From the NCBI GenBank assembly GCA_004292755.1, contig RDXE01000039.1, positions 1-64,000 on the forward strand: a stretch of DNA of 64,000 bases, written 5' to 3'. The notes beneath the pieces were generated by a model, which saw only the letters and a program-made list of their open reading frames with translations, did no database searches and was not told the DNA's origin. The position numbers and the translations under genes are program-made. Numbering within the stretch: position 1 is the stretch's first letter; each line of letters starts with the position of its first letter. Shown here piece by piece: positions 2,992 to 25,067 of the stretch. The DNA is from Alphaproteobacteria bacterium. Lineage in GTDB: Bacteria; Pseudomonadota; Alphaproteobacteria; Elsterales; Elsteraceae.

Positions 2992-3930
2992 TCAGACCAC
3001 TGGCGTCAGCAAGGGGCGGCCCTCCGCCCACGCGATCAGATTGTCCACCATCAACTGGCCCATGGCGGTGCGGGTTTCCACCGTACCACTGGCCTGATGG
3101 GGCTGGAGCACCACCGTGTCGAGCGAAAGCAAGGCCTCGGGGACCTGAGGCTCGTCCTCAAACACATCGAGACCAGCCCCAGCAATGCGCCGCTCGACCA
3201 GCGCGCGCACCAGGGCGGTCTGATCCACACAGCTGCCGCGTGCCACATTGATCAGCGTCCCCTCGGGCCCGAGGGCGGCAAGCACGCGCTCATCCACAAT
3301 GTGCCGCGTCTCCGACCCACCAGGGGTGATCACCACCAGCACATCCGCCACATCCGCCAAGGCGACGGGCGACGCCAGATAGCGGTAGGGCACATCGGCA
3401 ACGGGGCGACGGCTGTGATAGGCGATCTGCATCTTCATGGCAGCCGCGCGGGCGGCAATTTCCCGGCCAATGCGACCGAGGCCAAGGATGCCGAGGGTTT
3501 TGCCGGTCAAGCAGCGGTTGAGCGGCAGCGGTCCCTGCAGCCAGCGCCCGGCGCGCACGAAGCGATCGGCGGTCACGATCTGGCGCACCGTTGCCAGCAT
3601 CAAACCAATGGTGAGGTCCGCCACTTCATCGGACAACACATCCGGCGTGTTGGTGACACGAATGCCGCGGGCAGCAGCAGCAGCCAGATCGACCGCGTCC
3701 ACGCCAACGCCGAAGCAAGCGATCACCTCCAACCCCGGCAGGGCGTCCATCACCGCAGCATCGGCACCAACCCCACCCGAGACGGCAATCGCCCGCACCC
3801 GCCCGGCCAAGCTGGTCAACAGTGCTGTGCGATCCTCCGCCTGCCACAGATGGTGGCAGGTAAAGCGCTGCTCCAGCGTTGCGAGGGTGGGAGGATACAG
3901 CCGACTGGCAACCAGAACCTCTTGCCCCAT
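2992..3930 (-). CDS. D-isomer-specific 2-hydroxyacid dehydrogenase
   Basis: A 312-residue NAD(P)H-dependent reductase of 2-oxoacids such as hydroxypyruvate or glyoxylate. The nucleotide-binding motif GLGRIG is at residues 150-155, and the catalytic triad is visible as Arg231 (NVARGS), Glu260 (VFEDEP) and His278 (QPHQASGT). The family includes hydroxypyruvate, glyoxylate and hydroxyphenylpyruvate reductases; the exact substrate cannot be read from sequence. Its start lies 8 bases after the stop of the upstream glycosyltransferase gene, so the two are probably co-transcribed, although no metabolic link between them is obvious. Confidence 0.92.
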   Translation of the reverse strand: MGQEVLVASRLYPPTLATLEQRFTCHHLWQAEDRTALLTSLAGRVRAIAVSGGVGADAAVMDALPGLEVIACFGVGVDAVDLAAAAARGIRVTNTPDVLSDEVADLTIGLMLATVRQIVTADRFVRAGRWLQGPLPLNRCLTGKTLGILGLGRIGREIAARAAAMKMQIAYHSRRPVADVPYRYLASPVALADVADVLVVITPGGSETRHIVDERVLAALGPEGTLINVARGSCVDQTALVRALVERRIAGAGLDVFEDEPQVPEALLSLDTVVLQPHQASGTVETRTAMGQLMVDNLIAWAEGRPLLTPVV

Positions 3931-3938
3931 GACCTGCC

Positions 3939-5516
3939 CTACTCAATCAAGCCGTGATCCGCCGCGACGGTATCGAAGATAGCTTCGTAGGTTTTTTCCA
4001 GAGAACGCAACATGCGCGTCGAATCTGATAAAACGGAGGTGCGAAACATAGCCGAGATAGATTGGCGGGATGCAACCAACAAATCAGGGTTCCCTGCAAA
4101 CTCAATCGCTCTTGCGGCGTAGAACCTCTCTGATGGTGCCACCATTGGACCAAGTCCGCAGTGCGTTAAAAATGTCGCAGACATCCGAGATACCATTCGG
4201 TCACCCCAACAACACACCAGGGGTATTCCCATCAATAACGCATCGAGTGTCGTCTGCCCTCCATTGAATGGAAACGTATCCAATGAGATGTCTATCAGGC
4301 TATACTGTGCCAGGAATTCTTGAATTGAAAGAAATCCGGTTGTCCGAAACATCAGTCGAGATCGCTCAATACCGCATTCCTCGAACATTTTTGCAATTCG
4401 ATCAATCTGGCCACGCTCATTCACAACGTAATGACCAAAAAACATTTTTGATCCAGGCACCGCCTGCAGAATCTCCGCCCAAACCGCAACGAGCGTCGCA
4501 TGAATCTTGTCCAGACGGTTCAAGCAGCCAAACGTGATGTAGCCATTCGCCAAGCTTGGCGGCGGTCCAGCACTCGGCGGATCCACCGTGGGAAGAAAGG
4601 CATAGGCCGTTGGTTCAATGTAAAAAGGCCGCTCTGTCCAGGTTTGAGCAATCTCAGGCGGGCACATTAATGGATCAAGGATGGCTGCATCAAATAATTC
4701 ACAATACATACTATCGACTGTATTATACCACAGGACATTCGCCATCGCAGGTCTGTTTGCGAGTATTTCTAGACGCGGCATACCAAAGTTATCGAAAGGC
4801 ACCAAAACATCGATCCTATCATGTCTGATGATTTCGGCAGCAGCCTTGTCATCGGCTGGCAGTCCACGTCCCGTGAAGCTTTCGGAGTTCTCCAAACCAT
4901 ACACTCTAGGACGCGTCGGACCACCACTATTGTATGCATACACCTCAAATCTGTCTAGATCATGCCCCACGAGCAGTGGCACAACAATACTCTCATACGC
5001 CGAATACTCCCAAATGCTGGACAGGTACCCAATCTTCAGCTTTCGCCCCAAACGCGACGATCTGGTTGGGTGTGGTTTTAGTTTACCAACGATCATTTCC
5101 TCAGCGTATTGGATCCCGGACGCGATCCGCAAAAAATCGTCGCTGTTCGGGCCACTCTGAATACTGAACCTTTTCAATACGAGAGCATCTTTTCGAAAAT
5201 CGGGCCGCCCATTATTTAGGATCATGTCAAGATACGGGAGTGCACGCAGCGGCTCGAGATAGTTTATGAGTTGGGCCGCAACATTTAAACACAGCCAGTC
5301 ATCATCCGGATGCTGAGCAGCCGCACGCTCCAATAGATCACAAGCATCAGCAAAATTTCCGCATGCCTGTAATAGGTGTGCACGCCGAAATTTTAAAGTC
5401 GGAGTTACAAGCTCCGCATCAGTAAAATCCAGCAACATCCGTGCGGCTAGCTGCTGCTTGCCCTGATCTATCAACTCCTGAACCGTCCCGAAGATTGTGT
5501 CGTCTTGATCGGTCAT
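3939..5516 (-). CDS. TPR-containing GT41 (SPINDLY/O-GlcNAc-transferase-like) glycosyltransferase
   Basis: A 525-residue protein. Residues 1 to about 110 form helical TPR-like repeats (FRRAHLLQACGNFADACDLL). The rest matches the GT41 catalytic region: LKIGYLSSIWEYSAY, FGCLNRLDKIH, and the C-terminal donor-site stretch FPFNGGQTTLDALLMG. Family members transfer sugars to Ser/Thr of proteins, and bacterial copies are often implicated in flagellin or surface-protein glycosylation; the target here is unknown. A GTG at 5528 is an alternative start; the ATG at 5516 follows a GAGG about 11 bases upstream. Parts of the gene (for example 4380-4450 and 4680-4800) are much richer in A+T than neighbouring genes, which suggests horizontal acquisition. 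Confidence 0.88.
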   Translation of the reverse strand: MTDQDDTIFGTVQELIDQGKQQLAARMLLDFTDAELVTPTLKFRRAHLLQACGNFADACDLLERAAAQHPDDDWLCLNVAAQLINYLEPLRALPYLDMILNNGRPDFRKDALVLKRFSIQSGPNSDDFLRIASGIQYAEEMIVGKLKPHPTRSSRLGRKLKIGYLSSIWEYSAYESIVVPLLVGHDLDRFEVYAYNSGGPTRPRVYGLENSESFTGRGLPADDKAAAEIIRHDRIDVLVPFDNFGMPRLEILANRPAMANVLWYNTVDSMYCELFDAAILDPLMCPPEIAQTWTERPFYIEPTAYAFLPTVDPPSAGPPPSLANGYITFGCLNRLDKIHATLVAVWAEILQAVPGSKMFFGHYVVNERGQIDRIAKMFEECGIERSRLMFRTTGFLSIQEFLAQYSLIDISLDTFPFNGGQTTLDALLMGIPLVCCWGDRMVSRMSATFLTHCGLGPMVAPSERFYAARAIEFAGNPDLLVASRQSISAMFRTSVLSDSTRMLRSLEKTYEAIFDTVAADHGLIE

Positions 5517-5609
5517 AGTCGGCGACACCTCAAATTATGGACCTTGCAGCGGCGACCATCGCGCGTTCGATCAGCATCCGCCGTCATCTGGAAAAGTGTA
5601 AACACCAGA

Positions 5610-6893
5610 TCAAGCAGCTGCCAGCAGCTTCATCATCGCGCCAGCGCCAGCTGCACCAGCGGTTACCACCGGAATGGACAGATGTCGAACAAACAAAGCC
5701 CAAAAAGCACCCAGCACCAAGACCGCTGCTTGGCCATCCAGTGACGGAAGAACTGGCAAGATGGTCCGTAGCCCCACAATGGATGTTACCCTCACCTCCT
5801 GAAACAGGGCGTGCAAGGCGAACCAAAGGGCGACAAATCCAATCACGCCAACCACGCTGGCAGTGATGCCTTGCAGAGCCCCAACCAGACGGCGTTGTCG
5901 CCGGATATCCTCCAGAAACGGGGCTCCCGCAAAGATCCACAGGAATGATGGTGCAAAAGTAACCCAGGTTGCCATCACGGCTACCAAACTCGCATAAACC
6001 AGCAAGCTAGCCGACCCAGTACCAGAATATCCAGCAAGGAAGGCGACAAATTGATTGACCAGGATTGTTGGCCCAGGCGTCGTCTCCGCGAGACCAAGAC
6101 CATCCATCATTTGCTGGGCAGTCACCCAGCCGCGCGCAACCCCCTCTTGCGCGAGATACGCCAAGACGGCGTAAGCACCCCCAAAGGTCACCACCGACAG
6201 CTTGGAGAAAAACAGCCCGACCTCTACCAGCAGCGACGACCAACCCTCAATGAGACCCGCCAAGACGACAGGCGCCCACCAACCGCACAAGCACAGCACG
6301 GCGGCAATGCCAGCGGAGCGAAGATTGCGCGCCGACGCTGGCCCGCGTTCCACAGTGGCAGGCGCCAACCAAATTGCCCCGATGCAACCGGCTGCGAGAA
6401 CCAGGAGAGGAAACGGAACATCGAGGCCATAGATCACGAGAAACGTCGCAATCATGATGGCCTTCTGCAATCCGGTGCGGAGGCCCCGCTGCGCAATCTT
6501 GATCAGGGCATGGACAATAATTGCCAACACCGCTGCCTTGATGCCGAAAAACAAGCCATCAACCAGCGTCAGCCCAGTTCCCAAGACGTAAAGCCAGGAT
6601 AGCGCTAACATCAAAACCGCGCCGGGGATGACAAACAACAGGCCCGCCGCCAGCCCGCCGCGGATCCCATGGGTCTTCCAACCAATGTAGGTGGCAAGCT
6701 GCTGCGCCTCTGGACCAGGCAGCAGCATGCAATAATTGAGCGCCGCCAAGTAAGACGACTCGTCCAGCCAGCGCCGTTCTTCAACGATGATCCGGTGCAT
6801 CATGGCGATCTGACCGGCTGCCCCGCCGAAGGACAGGCAGCCGATCAGGGCAAATGTGCGGATCAGCTCCGCGAAGCTGGGGGTAATGAGCAT
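5610..6893 (-). CDS. chrA: Chromate ion transporter, long-chain ChrA type
   Basis: A 427-residue inner-membrane protein with two homologous CHR halves. The first half carries IGCLSFGGAAGQIAMMHR and MLLPGPEAQQLATYIGW; the second carries FSKLSVVTFGGAYAVLAYL and ETTPGPTILVNQFVAF. This is the standard arrangement of ChrA, which exports chromate. About ten hydrophobic segments are visible. A TTG at 6905 would add four residues; the ATG at 6893 was chosen because the longer start has no better ribosome site. No chrB regulator is nearby, so the gene may be constitutive or act on another oxyanion. Confidence 0.93.
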   Translation of the reverse strand: MLITPSFAELIRTFALIGCLSFGGAAGQIAMMHRIIVEERRWLDESSYLAALNYCMLLPGPEAQQLATYIGWKTHGIRGGLAAGLLFVIPGAVLMLALSWLYVLGTGLTLVDGLFFGIKAAVLAIIVHALIKIAQRGLRTGLQKAIMIATFLVIYGLDVPFPLLVLAAGCIGAIWLAPATVERGPASARNLRSAGIAAVLCLCGWWAPVVLAGLIEGWSSLLVEVGLFFSKLSVVTFGGAYAVLAYLAQEGVARGWVTAQQMMDGLGLAETTPGPTILVNQFVAFLAGYSGTGSASLLVYASLVAVMATWVTFAPSFLWIFAGAPFLEDIRRQRRLVGALQGITASVVGVIGFVALWFALHALFQEVRVTSIVGLRTILPVLPSLDGQAAVLVLGAFWALFVRHLSIPVVTAGAAGAGAMMKLLAAA

Positions 6894-6927
6894 CGCGTGC
6901 GTCAATTCCCCAGCTTCGCGACCTTTG

Positions 6928-8706
6928 TCAATGGCTGTCCCGCGGCGTGCCGTGAACCTCGGCGATGTTCAGATAAAGCGTGGCGGCCTCCAAGCACCCA
7001 CCACCGGACAACTGACCCACCATCTTGCGATAGATTTCCTGCCACGGCGTCTGATCGACCAGCACCGGCGGTGTCCACGCGGCGCGACGCTCAGCCAATT
7101 CTGCGTCGCTCACCAGCATGTCCACCCGCCGCCGGGCGAGGTCAACACGAACCCGATCCCCAGTGCGCAGCAGCGCAAGGCCGCCACCGACCACTGCCTC
7201 TGGCGAGGCATTCAGGATGGAGGGCGAGCCGGAGGTACCGCTCTGCCGACCATCACCGATGGTCGGCAGCGCTTCGATCCCCTGCTTCAACAGCGCATCG
7301 GGCGGCTGCATGTTCACCACCTCGGCCGAACCGGGATAGCCCACGGGGCCGACATTGCGGATGAACAGGATGGTTGCCTCATCAATCCCCAGGGTCTGGT
7401 CATTGATGCGGTCGTGATAATCCTCTGGCCCCTCAAACACGACAGCGCGGCCTTCAAACGCCTCAGGATCTTCCGGATTGGCGAGGTAGCGGGCGCGAAA
7501 CGCCGGGTCGATGGTGGAAACCTTCATCACCGCGGCATCAAACAGATTGCCAGACATGACCAGGAAGCCCGCCTTCTCCCGCATCGGCTGGTCATAAGCG
7601 CGGATCACGGCACGATCTGCCTTCGGCGCTGCTGCCAAATCCTCGCCGATGGTCGCACCGCTGACGGTGCGCGCAGCGGGGCTCAGCCGCCCTGCCTGCA
7701 GCAACTCATTCATGACCGCTGGCACCCCCCCAGCGCGATAGAACCCCTCGCCCAGAAACTCCCCAGCAGGCTGGAGATTGACCAGAAGGGGCACATCATG
7801 ACCGATCGTCTGCCAATCCTCTGACGTCAAATCAACACCGACATGGCGCGCAATGGCGATCAAGTGAGGATGGCAGTTGGTTGAGGCACCAATGGCCGAC
7901 GCGGTGACAATGGCATTCTCGAACGCCGCTCGGGTCATCACATCGGAGGGGCGGAGATTCTCCCACACCATCTCTACAGCGCGCTTGCCGGTGGTGTATG
8001 CCATCTGCGCGCGCTCTCGATACGGGGCTGGGATCGCCGCACAGCCAGGCAATGACATGCCGAGCGCCTCCGCCACGGAGTTCATCGACAGCGCCGTGCC
8101 CATGGTGTTGCAATGCCCGACCGACGGGGCCGAAGCACACACCATATTCATGAATTCCTCATAGTCGATCTCGCCCGCCCCTAAGAGGCGGCGCGCGTGC
8201 CACACAACAGTGCCAGAGCCAACCCGCTTGCCATCATACCAGCCATCCAGCATCGGGCCGCCCGACAACACAATGGCGGGAATGTTCACGGTACCTGCCG
8301 CCATCAAACAGGCTGGCGTGGTCTTGTCACACCCAGTGGTCAACACAACCCCATCGAGCGGATAGCCGTACATCACTTCGACCAGGCTCAGATAGGCAAG
8401 GTTGCGATCAAGCGAGGCGGTTGGTCGCTTGCCGCTTTCTTGAATGGGATGGGTTGGAAACTCCAACGGAATGCCACCCGCATCGCGGATACCGGCGCGA
8501 ATGCGATCCGCCAAACCAAGAAAATGGCGATTGCACGGGCTCAAGTCCGACCCGGTCTGCGCAATCCCAATGATTGGGCGACCGGACTGCAACTCCTCCC
8601 GGGTCAGGCCATAGTTCAGATAGCGCTCAATGTAGAGCGCAGTCATGCCTGGGTTGTGCGGATTGTCCCACCAGTCCTGACTGCGCAGGCGGCGTTTGCC
8701 GGTCAT
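6928..8706 (-). CDS. IlvD/Edd-family sugar-acid dehydratase (xylonate dehydratase-like)
   Basis: A 592-residue Fe-S dehydratase. Cluster and active-site motifs are visible: SPCNR, TTGCDKTTPA, SAPSVGHCNTMGTA, and the C-terminal TIGDGRQSGTSGSPS. The opening RLRSQDWWDNPHNPGMTALY and overall pattern are closer to pentonate dehydratases such as Caulobacter XylD than to IlvD of valine synthesis. The likely reaction is D-xylonate or a related sugar acid to the 2-keto-3-deoxy acid. The frame can be read back to 8865, but those 53 extra residues overlap the next gene and do not resemble the family, so the ATG at 8706 is chosen. No other pentose-catabolic gene lies nearby, which leaves the substrate open. 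Confidence 0.9.
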   Translation of the reverse strand: MTGKRRLRSQDWWDNPHNPGMTALYIERYLNYGLTREELQSGRPIIGIAQTGSDLSPCNRHFLGLADRIRAGIRDAGGIPLEFPTHPIQESGKRPTASLDRNLAYLSLVEVMYGYPLDGVVLTTGCDKTTPACLMAAGTVNIPAIVLSGGPMLDGWYDGKRVGSGTVVWHARRLLGAGEIDYEEFMNMVCASAPSVGHCNTMGTALSMNSVAEALGMSLPGCAAIPAPYRERAQMAYTTGKRAVEMVWENLRPSDVMTRAAFENAIVTASAIGASTNCHPHLIAIARHVGVDLTSEDWQTIGHDVPLLVNLQPAGEFLGEGFYRAGGVPAVMNELLQAGRLSPAARTVSGATIGEDLAAAPKADRAVIRAYDQPMREKAGFLVMSGNLFDAAVMKVSTIDPAFRARYLANPEDPEAFEGRAVVFEGPEDYHDRINDQTLGIDEATILFIRNVGPVGYPGSAEVVNMQPPDALLKQGIEALPTIGDGRQSGTSGSPSILNASPEAVVGGGLALLRTGDRVRVDLARRRVDMLVSDAELAERRAAWTPPVLVDQTPWQEIYRKMVGQLSGGGCLEAATLYLNIAEVHGTPRDSH

Positions 8707-20458: not shown

Positions 20459-20651
20459 GAGAAAAGGCCGGACGGCGACAGACCGCCTCGACGCCGGTCC
20501 GCCCGCTCAATAGCAAGGCCATCCCCATCGCCGCAATCGCCGCGACAAGGGGGCATGCAGCGAAGCCCCTCTGCATGGGAGAGTTGCAGCGACGGGCTTT
20601 GCGTTCGCCGCCTCAGACACCACTATCGGATAAGACCCTCATGGTCGGTGC

Positions 20652-20657
20652 GAGGAG
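20652..20657 (+). promoter_or_regulatory. Ribosome-binding site that sets the cysE start
   Basis: GAGGAG lies four bases before the ATG at 20662. It favours this start over in-frame ATGs at 20575 and 20641, neither of which has a comparable site. Confidence 0.7.
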
Positions 20658-20661
20658 ACTG

Positions 20662-21297
20662 ATGGAGCTTGCCGAACTGGTGCGCAGCATCCGCCTGCGC
20701 GACCCCGCCCGCCCCACCTGGGGTGAAGTGGTGTTCGCCTATCCTGGCGTTCACGCTGTTCTGTGGCACCGCCTTGCGCACGGGTTGTGGCGCCGCGGCT
20801 GGCGGACTTTCGGTCGCATCGCGAGCCACCTTGGCCGCATGCTGACCGGCATCGAAATCCACCCCGGCGCCAGGATTGGCCGCCGCCTGTTCATCGACCA
20901 CGGCATGGGTGTGGTGATTGGCGAGACCGCGGTGATCGGCGATGATGTGACGATCTACCACGGCGTGACCTTGGGTGGTTTGTCCTCCAAACCCGGCAAG
21001 CGCCATCCCGATGTGGATGATGGCGTGGTGATCGGTGCTGGCGCCCAAGTGCTGGGCCCAATCCGCCTCGCAACGGGCGCCAAGGTGGGTGCCAACTCCG
21101 TGGTGCTGCAAGATGTCGCCCCCGGCGTAACCGTGATCGGCGCCCCCGCCCAACCCCTCGGCACCGCCCCCGGCCAGCAACACTGCGGCTACGGCTTCGG
21201 CGACGCCTGCGTCGACCCAATCTCCGAACGCCTCAGCGCCCTGGAAGCCGACCTCGCCAGCCTGCGCGAGCAGGTGAAGGGACGGGAGCGGGTGTGA
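20662..21297 (+). CDS. cysE: Serine O-acetyltransferase
   Basis: A 211-residue trimeric left-handed beta-helix enzyme that makes O-acetylserine from serine and acetyl-CoA. Hexapeptide repeats run from about residue 65, with the catalytic segment RRLFIDHGMGVVIGETAVIG, then DDVTIYHGVTLGG and VIGAGAQVLGPI. It is of the short form without the long N-terminal helical domain of the enterobacterial enzyme. It is divergent from hisZ, with a 203-base gap in which I see no further gene. Confidence 0.93.
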   Translation: MELAELVRSIRLRDPARPTWGEVVFAYPGVHAVLWHRLAHGLWRRGWRTFGRIASHLGRMLTGIEIHPGARIGRRLFIDHGMGVVIGETAVIGDDVTIYHGVTLGGLSSKPGKRHPDVDDGVVIGAGAQVLGPIRLATGAKVGANSVVLQDVAPGVTVIGAPAQPLGTAPGQQHCGYGFGDACVDPISERLSALEADLASLREQVKGRERV

Positions 21298-21471: not shown

Positions 21472-22413
21472 TTACCCATCTGCAGGAGACCGAGGCTCGG
21501 CCAAGGCCACGACACCACTGTGGCGATGACTGGCCCGCACAGCTTCCAGTTGGGCACTCGTCGTCACTGGCACTGCGACGAACTCCTCTCGCGCAAGGGC
21601 GGGAATGCCCAGCCTGAGGGCAAGCTCGCGATCGGCGACGCCGCTGAGCAACACAATACCCTGCGGCTCCAACCGGTCCCGCACGCCACCATTGCTGCGC
21701 AGTCGCTTCATGAAATCTTTTTGGCGGGCAACCGATTCAACCGTCCCTCGCGCAATTGGGCGTCCCAGGAACGCCTGAAACAGGGCATACAGACGCTCGG
21801 TTCCGCTGGTGGGCTGCATAATCGAGCGGCGTATGTGAGTTGGCACAGCCTCCCAAAAATTTGCTGGATAGGGATGATTCTTTAAAATCCAATGGATGTT
21901 CTTCCGCCCAATAGCCGATACTGACACTTTACCGTCTTTGTTCGCACCACCTGTCAGGTAAGCTGGATGGCAGATCAACAATCCAACACTACACACAGCA
22001 GAAGGCTCATTTTCAGAAATCAGAATACAAGGCTTTCTGATCGCTTCTGAGGGGATCATCCAGTTACCAGTCACTGTGTTTTTCACGTCGATGTCTAGCC
22101 CAGCAACATCGAGGTCTAACAGGCCTTTGGGAACGCCTAGGAAATCTCGGATCAATATCTCAACTTTGGTCCCGAGGTAGGTCTTCTCAGTCTTCTCAAG
22201 TTGAGCCAGAACGAAACGACCCGTCCGTGGCATGTCAATTACTTCATCGATGGCAAGGCGTAGGCGCCGGGGAATTTCCTGTGCAAACACAGCCCAACCA
22301 CCTGACCGCTCTTCAATGGCTGCAGCCACCCGATCAATGATCGCACGATCCGGATGATCAACTGCCAACGGCTCAGCCGGAACCGAGCCAACGGAGAACA
22401 AATCAGCGTCCAT
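21472..22413 (-). CDS. NaeI-like type II restriction endonuclease
   Basis: A 313-residue protein, close to the 317 of NaeI. The nuclease core is recognisable: KVEILIRDF followed by LLDLDVAGLDIDVKN and GNWMIPSEAI. Candidate catalytic residues are Glu85, Asp100, Asp109 and Lys111; the spacing of the last three equals that of Asp86, Asp95 and Lys97 in NaeI. The C-terminal part (residues 160-310) would be the second DNA-binding domain of the family. Its start overlaps the end of the methyltransferase gene by 11 bases; a TTG at 22422 is an alternative. A+T-rich stretches (21860-22130) contrast with the neighbours and point to transfer. By family analogy the target may be GCCGGC, but that is inference. 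Confidence 0.82.
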   Translation of the reverse strand: MDADLFSVGSVPAEPLAVDHPDRAIIDRVAAAIEERSGGWAVFAQEIPRRLRLAIDEVIDMPRTGRFVLAQLEKTEKTYLGTKVEILIRDFLGVPKGLLDLDVAGLDIDVKNTVTGNWMIPSEAIRKPCILISENEPSAVCSVGLLICHPAYLTGGANKDGKVSVSAIGRKNIHWILKNHPYPANFWEAVPTHIRRSIMQPTSGTERLYALFQAFLGRPIARGTVESVARQKDFMKRLRSNGGVRDRLEPQGIVLLSGVADRELALRLGIPALAREEFVAVPVTTSAQLEAVRASHRHSGVVALAEPRSPADG

Positions 22414-23416
22414 GCCCCACAACAGTCACCAGCGCCCGGTTGGGCCGCGCAGACCCAGCCGCCGGACGCCCCTTACCACGGGCTGCTGCCTCAAGTGCCG
22501 CGCGCACTTGACGCCCAACCGCGCAAGCGACGGGCGGTGGAAAAGCATTGCCCACTTGCCGATAGGCCGCAGTTTTGCGCCCAGAGAACTGCCAATCGTC
22601 GGGGAACCCCTGCAACCGCGCCGCCATCCGCACGGTTAAGCGCGGCATCCCATCGAACCCAGGCTCCGGTGCTTCGAGGGCCAGAGACTTGCCGTTCACG
22701 CCAAGCACCGCCCAAGCCGCACGCGCCCGCGTTGGCCCAAGGTCGGGTCCACCATGTTTCTTGGAGCCGCCAACCAATGTGGGCGCAATGTCGTCAGCCT
22801 GGTCGGCCCACGCAGCCGCTCCCTCCCACCCATTGGCCGCCATTAGATCCAGCAGGCACGCCCCCACAGTTGGGGGCGAGGAGGGATGCGGCGTCGGCCA
22901 GCGAAAATGCTCTGCCGCCTCAGCCGCGAGAGCCACGAACACAACCCGCGGACGAAGCTGCGGCACGCCATAGTCAGCAGCGTTCAACAAGCGCCAATCA
23001 CACCAAAAGCCAAGGCGCTTGAGACCCTGGCGAATGTTCTCGCGCACCTGTTCAAAGCGGGGATCGAGAATGCCTTTGACATTTTCAATAATCGCGCCGC
23101 GCGGGCGGACCTCATCCATGATGCGCAGCCCGTGCCCAAACAAATCACGGTCATCGGCAGGCCCAAGTTGCTTGCCCGCAATGCTATAGGGCGGACACGG
23201 CAGCCCACCGGTCACCAAATCCACGCCCCGCCACTCGGTGGCTGAAAACACCGTCAGATCTGCTTCCCTCACAGTCCAATGCGGCCGATTGAGCCGGAGC
23301 GTCGTACAGGCTGGCGCGTCGTTATCCACCAACGCCACATGATCAATGCCCGCCAACTCCAGTCCAAGCGCTTGGCCACCTGCACCAGCACACAACTCAA
23401 TCGATTGGATTGGCAT
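22403..23416 (-). CDS. DNA (cytosine-5) methyltransferase of the restriction-modification pair
   Basis: A 337-residue Dcm-type enzyme. Motif I is IELCAGAGGQALGLELAG, motif IV GGLPCPPYS with catalytic Cys74, motif VI ENVKGI, motif VIII LRPRVVF, and motif X AYRQVGNAFPPPVA. A variable target-recognition region lies between motifs VIII and IX. GGAGG five bases before the ATG at 23416 supports this start over a TTG three bases upstream. Modification comes first in the operon and the endonuclease follows with an overlap, an order that lets protection precede cutting. Confidence 0.93.
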   Translation of the reverse strand: MPIQSIELCAGAGGQALGLELAGIDHVALVDNDAPACTTLRLNRPHWTVREADLTVFSATEWRGVDLVTGGLPCPPYSIAGKQLGPADDRDLFGHGLRIMDEVRPRGAIIENVKGILDPRFEQVRENIRQGLKRLGFWCDWRLLNAADYGVPQLRPRVVFVALAAEAAEHFRWPTPHPSSPPTVGACLLDLMAANGWEGAAAWADQADDIAPTLVGGSKKHGGPDLGPTRARAAWAVLGVNGKSLALEAPEPGFDGMPRLTVRMAARLQGFPDDWQFSGRKTAAYRQVGNAFPPPVACAVGRQVRAALEAAARGKGRPAAGSARPNRALVTVVGHGR

Positions 23417-23522: not shown

Positions 23523-25067
23523 TCACTCCCACTCGATTGTGCCCGGTGGTTTGCTCGTCACGTCGTACACCACGCGGTTGATGCCGCGGACTTCGTTGAT
23601 GATGCGGGTGGCGACGCGGGCGAGGAAGCTGTGGTCGAAGGGGTAGCTCTCGGCTGTCATGCCGTCGGTGGAGGTGACGGCGCGCAAGGCCAGCACGTGG
23701 TCGTAGCTGCGGGCGTCGCCCATCACGCCAACGCTGCGCACAGGCAGCAGCACCGCGAAGGCTTGCCAGATTTGGTCGTAGAGGCCCGCTTTGCGGATTT
23801 CGTCCAGGTACACCGCATCTGCACGGCGCAGCAGGTCGGCCTTGTCGCGCGTCACAGCGCCGGGGATGCGGATGGCGAGGCCGGGGCCGGGGAACGGGTG
23901 GCGGCCCACCATGCTTTCCGGCAGACCAAGCTCGCGGCCAAGGGCGCGCACCTCGTCCTTGAACAGCATGCGCAGGGGCTCCACCAGCTTCAGCCGCATA
24001 CCCTCGGGCAGACCGCCCACATTGTGGTGGGACTTGATGGTGACCGACGGGCCACCCGTTGCCGAGACACTTTCAATCACGTCGGGGTAGAGCGTGCCCT
24101 GGGCCAGAAATTCAGCCCCGCCCACCTTTGCTTGCTCTTCCTCAAAGACTTCGATGAAGGTGGCACCAATGATTTTGCGCTTCGCCTCGGGGTCTTCGAC
24201 GCCTGACAAGCGGCCCAGGAAAATGTCCGACGCGTCCCGCGCCACCAGTGGAATGTTGTAGTGATCACGGAACAGCCGCACCACTTGCTCGGTCTCGCCC
24301 GCGCGCATCAAGCCGTGGTCGACATAGATGCAGTGCAGCTGGCTGCCAATCGCCTCGTGAATCAGCACAGCTGCGACGGCACTGTCCACCCCACCAGACA
24401 AGCCGCAGATCACCCGGCCCTGCCCCACCTGCTGGCGAATGCTGGCCACCATCTGGTGGCGGAACGCCGCCATGGTCCAATCGCCGCTGAGCCCGGCCAC
24501 CTTGCGCACGAATGTTTCCAACAGCTTGGCGCCGCGCGGGGTGTGCACCACCTCGGGGTGGAACTGCACGCCATAGAAGCGCCGCGCCTCGTCGGCGATC
24601 ATCGCGAAGGGGGAGTTGTCGGAGGTCGCCACCACGGCGAATCCAGGTGGAATCGCCGTGATGGTATCGCCGTGGGACATCCACACCGGCTCCACATCAC
24701 CGGGGGCCAACCACCCATCGGTCAGCGCCGAGGCTTGGCGCACCTGAATGTCCGCGCGGCCAAACTCGCGGTGGTGGCCGGTCTCCACGGTTCCGCCCAA
24801 CTGGGCGCACATGGTCATTTCGCCATAGCAAATGCCCAGCACCGGCACGCCGAGGGTAAACACCACATCGGGTGCCCGCGGCGTCTCGGCTTCCGTCACC
24901 GAGGCCGGTCCACCGGACAGAATAATCGCCTGCGGACCAAAGCTGCGAATAGCGTCTTCCGTCATCCGATAGGGATGCACCTCGGAATAAACCCCGGCTT
25001 CGCGCACCCGGCGGGCGATCAATTGGGTAACCTGGGAGCCGAAATCGAGAATCAGCACACGGTCCAT
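23523..25067 (-). CDS. guaA: GMP synthase (glutamine-hydrolysing)
   Basis: A 514-residue enzyme converting XMP to GMP with glutamine nitrogen and ATP. The N-terminal class I amidotransferase has [13 protein letters not shown], nucleophile Cys80 in [11 protein letters not shown], and the His-Glu pair in [12 protein letters not shown]. The ATP-pyrophosphatase P-loop is [12 protein letters not shown] and the dimerisation domain ends [10 protein letters not shown]. The gene is followed by the restriction-modification pair and begins only three bases after the GNAT gene's stop, so it is part of the rsmB-GNAT-guaA transcript. Confidence 0.97.

What the first reader, a model, noticed from the sequence alone, without database searches (positions are those of the whole stretch)
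21472..23416. NaeI-like restriction-modification pair inserted between cysE and guaA
The endonuclease shares length (313 versus 317), catalytic spacing (Asp100, Asp109, Lys111) and the WMIPSEAI element with NaeI, an unusual enzyme that needs two DNA sites and is related to topoisomerase-like activity. The cognate m5C methyltransferase overlaps it. Low GC inside the endonuclease gene and housekeeping genes on both sides suggest recent arrival.
Basis: partly seen in the sequence, partly recalled or inferred. Interest (0 to 1): 0.5.

Follow-up and report, generated by a model that had tools for sequence, protein, structure and literature searches.

The report
NaeI-family restriction-modification gene pair
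This is a two-gene bacterial DNA-defence system whose cutting enzyme belongs to the rare NaeI family and whose protecting methylase very probably marks GCCGGC; the pair itself is ordinary, but the methylase's relatives are found paired with at least three unrelated kinds of cutting enzyme.

Summary
Window 21472-22413 (-) encodes a 313-aa NaeI-family endonuclease (Pfam NaeI E 4.7e-56; PDB NaeI E 4.1e-32; predicted fold matches 1iaw, TM 0.71). NaeI's E70/D86/D95/K97 are E85/D100/D109/K111 here, invariant in NaeI, the window and 18 relatives. The upstream m5C methylase overlaps it by 11 bp.

GCCGGC is supported only indirectly. The methylase is 58% identical to the one beside NgoMIV (GCCGGC), with a nearly identical recognition core. 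Its relatives accompany NaeI-, NgoMIV- or HNH-type endonucleases; tests reject a single clade for NaeI-paired and for NgoMIV-paired methylases. GCCGGC is the most avoided hexamer palindrome by z in the genome sample (82 vs 324.5 expected; O/E 0.90 in the congener), but two non-carriers of the family avoid it as strongly.

Three inferences fail or stay open. Low GC does not show recency: the endonuclease is below its methylase in 17 of 17 pairs. No relative examined shows guaA and cysE adjacent, so "inserted between" is unproven, though the pair was not found in 8 family relatives. The topoisomerase link does not carry over: NaeI Leu43 is Val58 here, Val/Ile/Leu in 19 of 19.

New member of a known kind.

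The parts
21472..22413 (-). NaeI-family restriction endonuclease gene (313 aa; possible TTG start at 22422)
   Evidence: Pfam NaeI E 4.7e-56; NaeI 1ev7/1iaw E 4.1e-32; predicted fold TM 0.71 to 1iaw
22081..22161 (-). Codons of catalytic residues Glu85 (22159-22161), Asp100 (22114-22116), Asp109 (22087-22089), Lys111 (22081-22083)
   Evidence: Aligned with NaeI E70/D86/D95/K97; invariant in 20 of 20 rows. The NaeI residue roles are recalled.
22240..22242 (-). Val58 codon, position of NaeI Leu43 (the ligase/topoisomerase-like position)
   Evidence: Val in 16, Ile in 2, Leu in 1 of 19 sequences besides NaeI; never Lys
21544..21906 (-). C-terminal effector (topo/winged-helix) domain, about residues 170-290
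   Evidence: Sequence alignment to NaeI runs to residue 290; Foldseek alignment of 286 columns to 1iaw; the domain name and its start are recalled/approximate
22403..23416 (-). m5C DNA methyltransferase gene (337 aa), upstream of and overlapping the endonuclease gene
   Evidence: PF00145 E 2.7e-61, dcm TIGR00675 E 1e-48; the only PF00145 match at E<=0.001 in the draft genome
22403..22413 (-). 11-bp overlap of methylase stop and endonuclease start
   Evidence: Coordinates
22727..22771 (-). Methylase target-recognition core GGSKKHGGPDLGPTR (residues 216-230)
   Evidence: The methylase beside NgoMIV has the same core with one Pro-to-Ala difference; in 14 aligned methylases only that position varies; motif with P or A present in 20 of 20 NaeI-paired and 27 of 31 NgoMIV-paired rows. 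That this is the recognition region is recalled.
23523..23542 (-). guaA 3' end with GAGTGGGA core, a known integration target elsewhere; no second copy of the 20-mer in the window at up to 3 mismatches
   Evidence: passages of PMC9376610

Best explanation
A complete Type II restriction-modification system of the NaeI family. The methylase, first in a two-gene operon with overlapping stop and start, methylates a cytosine in GCCGGC across the host genome. The endonuclease, a two-domain protein with a PD-(D/E)XK nuclease domain and a C-terminal DNA-binding effector domain, cuts unmethylated GCCGGC in incoming DNA, most likely as a Type IIE dimer that needs a second site bound in the effector domain. 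Shown by sequence: family membership, active-site residues, both domains, the overlap, kinship of the methylase to the one beside NgoMIV. Inferred: GCCGGC specificity, two-site activation, expression, defence role, and arrival by horizontal transfer within the history of this bacterial family.
For: Pfam NaeI E 4.7e-56; PDB NaeI E 4.1e-32; model pLDDT 86.7 with only three NaeI chains at E<=0.001 in the PDB. E/D/D/K invariant in 20 of 20 rows. An m5C methylase 54-68% identical lies near the NaeI gene in the 7 relatives first fetched and in 16 of the 22 non-window NaeI loci. The methylase is 58% identical to the gonococcal one next to NgoMIV (286 of 286 residues matched to 1fiu) and has its recognition core but for one Pro/Ala difference. 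It is the only PF00145 match of the genome. GCCGGC 82 observed vs 324.5 expected, lowest z of 56 palindromes. Pair not found in G398-G405, the 8 other genomes of the family searched.
Against: No methylome or cleavage data. GCCGGC is as depleted in two same-family non-carriers (G402 O/E 0.17, G404 0.23), and it is also the lowest-z palindrome in the non-carriers G402 and G414; CCCGGG, a different site, is as depleted in this genome (0.20). So avoidance is not specific evidence. NaeI is only about 31-32% identical, and NaeI-family specificity could have drifted. The two-site requirement is untested.
Confidence: 0.84

Rival explanations
1. An NaeI-family pair with a changed target (a subset or relaxed form of GCCGGC, or another G+C-rich palindrome such as CCCGGG).
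For: CCCGGG is as avoided as GCCGGC in this genome (35 vs 173.9 expected); the endonuclease is only about 31-32% identical to NaeI; no protein-DNA contact could be checked.
Against: Methylase recognition core shared, but for one Pro/Ala difference, with the methylase beside NgoMIV and kept in 20 of 20 NaeI-paired methylases; GCCGGC has the lowest z of 56 palindromes and the largest drop against the congener, 1 of 38, with CCCGGG close behind.
Confidence: 0.1
2. The pair is a decaying relic: the methylase persists, the endonuclease is silent or inactive.
For: Nothing direct; restriction genes often decay (recalled).
Against: Open frame of 313 aa without stops, all four catalytic residues kept, high-confidence fold, overlapping gene order intact.
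Confidence: 0.06
3. On the origin (compatible with the main reading): the pair is cargo of a tyrosine-integrase island at the 3' end of guaA, a known integration hotspot.
For: guaA ends with GAGTGGGA, the GIsul2 target (PMC9376610, passages). The congener G398 has a detached 73-codon guaA 3' end next to a subtilase gene, as an island border would leave. The gene next to guaA differs between the three relatives inspected by eye.
Against: No second copy of the guaA 3' end in the window with up to 3 mismatches; the 4 PF00589 integrases found in the genome lie on other contigs (serine recombinases were not searched); only short, chance-like direct repeats around the pair.
Confidence: 0.15

Closest known systems
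NaeI (PDB 1ev7, 1iaw), Type IIE endonuclease
   Same: Nuclease and C-terminal effector domains, E/D/D/K active site, WM(I/L)PxE element, length (313 vs 317)
   Different: 31-32% identity by structure alignment; Leu43-Tyr44-Asp45-Gly46 is Val-Ile-Asp-Met, so the ligase-like motif is lost
NaeI-family systems on plasmids of Loktanella salsilacus and Rhodococcus opacus B4
   Same: Endonuclease with an m5C methylase nearby
   Different: 42.5% and 34.2% endonuclease identity over 78% and 75% of the query; Rhodococcus adds genes annotated as HNH endonuclease and very short patch repair endonuclease and has the methylase divergent; the window genome has no Vsr match
NgoMIV system (GCCGGC, Type IIF)
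   Same: Methylase 58% identical with a nearly identical recognition core, same gene order
   Different: Endonuclease of another Pfam family (PF09015 in its relatives) and another branch of PD-(D/E)XK nucleases (PMC4081073, passages)

Membership tests
NaeI family (PF09126) | Profile match over the curated cut-off across both domains | tested here: met
   190.6 bits vs cut-off 25, profile 19-261 of 288
NaeI family (PF09126) | Active-site Glu70/Asp86/Asp95/Lys97 | tested here: met
   Glu85/Asp100/Asp109/Lys111, invariant in 20 of 20 rows; residue roles recalled
NaeI family (PF09126) | Fold of NaeI including the C-terminal domain | tested here: met
   TM 0.71/0.73 over 286 columns to 1iaw
NaeI family (PF09126) | Recognition of GCCGGC, cut GCC^GGC (recalled) | tested here: inconclusive
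   Indirect: methylase kinship and avoidance shared with non-carriers
Type IIE endonucleases | Cleavage stimulated by a second, uncut copy of the site | not testable with these tools
   Needs biochemistry; only the presence of the effector domain is shown
NaeI topoisomerase-like variant | Lys at position 43 | tested here: not met
   Val58; 0 of 19 sequences besides NaeI have Lys
m5C DNA methyltransferases | PF00145 profile and Pro-Cys catalytic motif | tested here: met
   PF00145 E 2.7e-61; PCPP at 73-76

The most novel reading that the evidence does not exclude
The GCCGGC methylase is the constant core of a modular system: one methylase lineage has repeatedly changed its endonuclease partner among at least three unrelated nuclease families (NaeI-type, NgoMIV-type, HNH-type) with almost no change in its recognition core, so the protecting enzyme fixes the target and the cutting enzyme is a replaceable part.
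Probability: 0.65. Interest if true: 0.45.

Novelty: new member of a known kind. Interest (0 to 1): 0.3.

Why it matters
The pair adds an NaeI-type system that could be expressed and tested, from a rare family (3 other genomes of 397 in one sample and 4 of 384 in another, G115 counted in both). The comparison shows that NaeI's ligase-like Leu43 motif, the basis of its topoisomerase story, is not a general family feature. The wider result is an easily tested case of one methylase lineage serving three endonuclease families, which bears on whether restriction and modification genes evolve together or are recombined.

Tried and rejected
Low GC as evidence of recent arrival: rejected, because the endonuclease is below its methylase in 17 of 17 pairs, in loci whose remaining DNA ranges from 41% to 68% GC. 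GCCGGC avoidance as proof of specificity: rejected, because G402 and G404 avoid it as strongly and no NaeI-family gene or relative of this methylase was found in them. Methylation-driven C-to-T decay: no excess of GCTGGC or GTCGGC against the congener (ratios 1.03 and 0.97; GCCGGT 0.74), so no support. Integrase island: no att repeat in the window and no PF00589 integrase on the contig. Vsr partner: no match in the genome. Phage records: no match to the endonuclease at E<=1e-3. The original NaeI papers (PMC203366, PMC19870, PMC147561) are not held, so NaeI residue roles, the Leu43-to-Lys topoisomerase variant (only a reference title naming NaeI-43K was seen), the NaeI site and the domain names are recalled; the held review PMC4081073 (passages) prints the NaeI site as GCC|CCG, which I take as a misprint of GCC|GGC. 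The organism of the window was not determined.

Rows dropped. One search left out L060 and L062 (of the L061 kind), L063 (cut by the contig end) and L064 (split over two frames); L004-L006 are the same loci as L019-L021. One search left out L227-L231 (27-29% identity or a fragment); L053-L058 enter there through the same contigs as L159, L164, L155, L165, L180 and L171. further left out rows with no partner, weak HNH, both partners or the L072-type partner, plus L219 (long branch), L204 and L205, and two identical rows. Of the 16 plasmid records with a methylase match I looked at the neighbourhood of 8.

Full report
WHAT IS THERE. On the minus strand, between cysE (20575-21297 +) and guaA (23523-25067 -), lie a methylase gene (23416 to 22403, 337 aa) and then an endonuclease gene (22413 to 21472, 313 aa), overlapping by 11 bp. 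The flanking names rest on NCBIfam equivalogs (cysE TIGR01172 E 2.1e-68; guaA NF000848 E 1.8e-238). The endonuclease hits one Pfam family, NaeI, at E 4.7e-56, and one PDB sequence, NaeI 1ev7/1iaw, at E 4.1e-32. An AlphaFold2 model from 9 sequences (pLDDT 86.7) matches 1iaw with TM 0.71/0.73 over 286 columns; three NaeI chains are the only PDB matches at E<=0.001. So both domains of NaeI are present.

CATALYTIC RESIDUES. In an alignment of NaeI, the window and 18 relatives (20 rows), Glu70, Asp86, Asp95 and Lys97 of NaeI correspond to Glu85, Asp100, Asp109 and Lys111 and are invariant in 20 of 20 rows. That these four are NaeI's active site is recalled; the original papers are not held.

TOPOISOMERASE LINK. 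NaeI becomes a topoisomerase when Leu43 is changed to Lys (recalled; PMC4081073, passages seen, mentions a functional connection to topoisomerases and a reference title naming NaeI-43K). Here that position is Val58. Across 19 sequences besides NaeI it is Val in 16, Ile in 2, Leu in 1, never Lys; Gly46 of the ligase-like motif is kept in 5 of 19 and Asp45 in 12 of 19. The motif is confined to part of the family and says nothing for such an activity here.

THE METHYLASE AND THE SITE. The methylase is the only PF00145 match in the draft genome. In the first 7 relatives fetched a methylase 54-68% identical lies near the NaeI gene, and in 16 of the 22 non-window NaeI loci; the exceptions are L059, three single-domain viral forms (L060-L062) and two partial loci (L063, L064). 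It is 58% identical to a Neisseria gonorrhoeae methylase whose neighbour matches NgoMIV over 286 of 286 residues (E 1e-188). NgoMIV recognises GCCGGC (PMC4081073; PMC3832669; passages seen). The recognition core GGSKKHGGPDLGPTR is shared but for one Pro/Ala difference. This is the best evidence for GCCGGC here, and it is indirect.

ONE METHYLASE LINEAGE, SEVERAL NUCLEASES. A scan of viral contigs with the methylase alignment kept 77 loci (81 matched, best 80 kept). Endonucleases in the locus: NgoMIV-type 27, HNH-type 15 (5 of them weak), NaeI-type 10 (6 on the contigs of L053-L058), NaeI plus HNH 1, an L072-like kind 1, none recognised 23; some loci are near-duplicates. On plasmids (8 of 16 matching records inspected) the same lineage accompanies NgoMIV-type nucleases (L068-L071), an HNH (L073), an unassigned protein (L072) and NaeI-type nucleases (L007, L008). 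On a tree of 57 methylases with the three main partners the fewest partner changes are 14 (shuffled mean 23.6). Holding all 19 NaeI-paired rows in one clade is rejected (p-AU 7.9e-13), as is holding the 29 NgoMIV-paired rows (p-AU 8.9e-06). Against this: trees are of the quick kind, two long branches meet, well-supported branches alone force only 3 changes for each label, HNH labels are no more clustered than shuffled ones (189 of 500 as low), HNH as one clade was not tested, and the tests were run after a first tree had been seen. The core motif is present in 20 of 20 NaeI-paired, 27 of 31 NgoMIV-paired and 10 of 11 HNH-paired rows; three of the four NgoMIV misses differ by one residue. The window's methylase groups with L223, another NaeI-type pair (98). 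Five paper searches, each a capped list of titles and abstract starts, showed none describing this partner exchange; I do not claim that it is unpublished.

SITE AVOIDANCE. In 356 kb of this genome (window plus 20 stretches), GCCGGC occurs 82 times against 324.5 expected by a maximal-order Markov model: O/E 0.25, z -13.5, lowest z of 56 palindromes and second-lowest O/E after CCCGGG (0.20). Same-genus G398, in which the pair was not found, has 434 vs 484.6 (0.90); G399 0.84; G400 1.01. But the non-carriers G402 (0.17) and G404 (0.23) avoid it as strongly, among many avoided palindromes; the class non-carriers G414 (0.53, its lowest z) and G409 (0.90) differ. Other carriers: G115 0.46, G396 0.53, G454 0.67, G507 0.41. 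Avoidance agrees with a GCCGGC system that is not brand new, but does not prove it.

AGE AND PLACE. The pair was not found in the 8 other genomes of the family searched, G398-G405 (several are incomplete, and rang nowhere, though the same profile found the pair). So acquisition within this family is likely. Low GC is not the right argument: the endonuclease has lower GC than its methylase in 17 of 17 pairs. Nor was an intact cysE-guaA junction seen: of 10 relatives with guaA (L009-L018) none has cysE in the stretch held downstream, which was short (0.2-2.2 kb) in L011-L013. In G398, cysE is followed by other open frames on its contig, and a 73-codon guaA end lies beside a subtilase gene. The guaA 3' end is a known integration target with core GAGTGGGA (PMC9376610, passages), but no second copy of the 20-base end lies in the window and the four PF00589 integrases lie on other contigs.

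VERDICT. A real, intact-looking NaeI-family Type II system, most likely GCCGGC-specific: a new member of a known kind. The more interesting lead is the methylase lineage that exchanges nucleases.

Noticed in passing
L060 4983-5522, L061 4989-5522, L062 (viral contigs): A conserved viral-contig gene of 177-179 aa that is the NaeI nuclease domain alone (Pfam NaeI profile 15-164 of 288), with E/D/D/K kept (checked on the L061 row), no effector domain and no methylase match in the locus. L060 has an HNH gene just upstream. L060 and L061 are 88% identical in it and share the early stop, so it looks like a real single-domain form.
   Followed up: partly
L050 5207-5425 and 5453-7828 (same-genus genome G398, contig C27): A detached last 73 codons of guaA (90% identical) beside a subtilase gene, as expected at the border of an island integrated in guaA; contig break or misassembly not excluded.
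   Followed up: partly
L008 (Rhodococcus opacus pROB02) 3562-7421; L210: L008 holds the methylase, an HNH endonuclease, a NaeI-type endonuclease and an annotated very short patch repair gene; L210 likewise has both NaeI- and HNH-type genes. Possible intermediates of partner exchange.
   Followed up: partly
L207 4955-5788 and L072 3893-4729: Two partners of the same methylase lineage related to each other (E 6.7e-09); L072's has no Pfam match and L207's has only a sub-threshold NgoMIV match (17.1 bits vs 23.2): possibly a diverged NgoMIV-like nuclease.
   Followed up: partly
window and G000 stretches L022-L041: CCCGGG is as strongly avoided as GCCGGC in this genome (35 vs 173.9 expected), and no second PF00145 methylase was found to explain it; other methylase types were not searched.
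   Followed up: no
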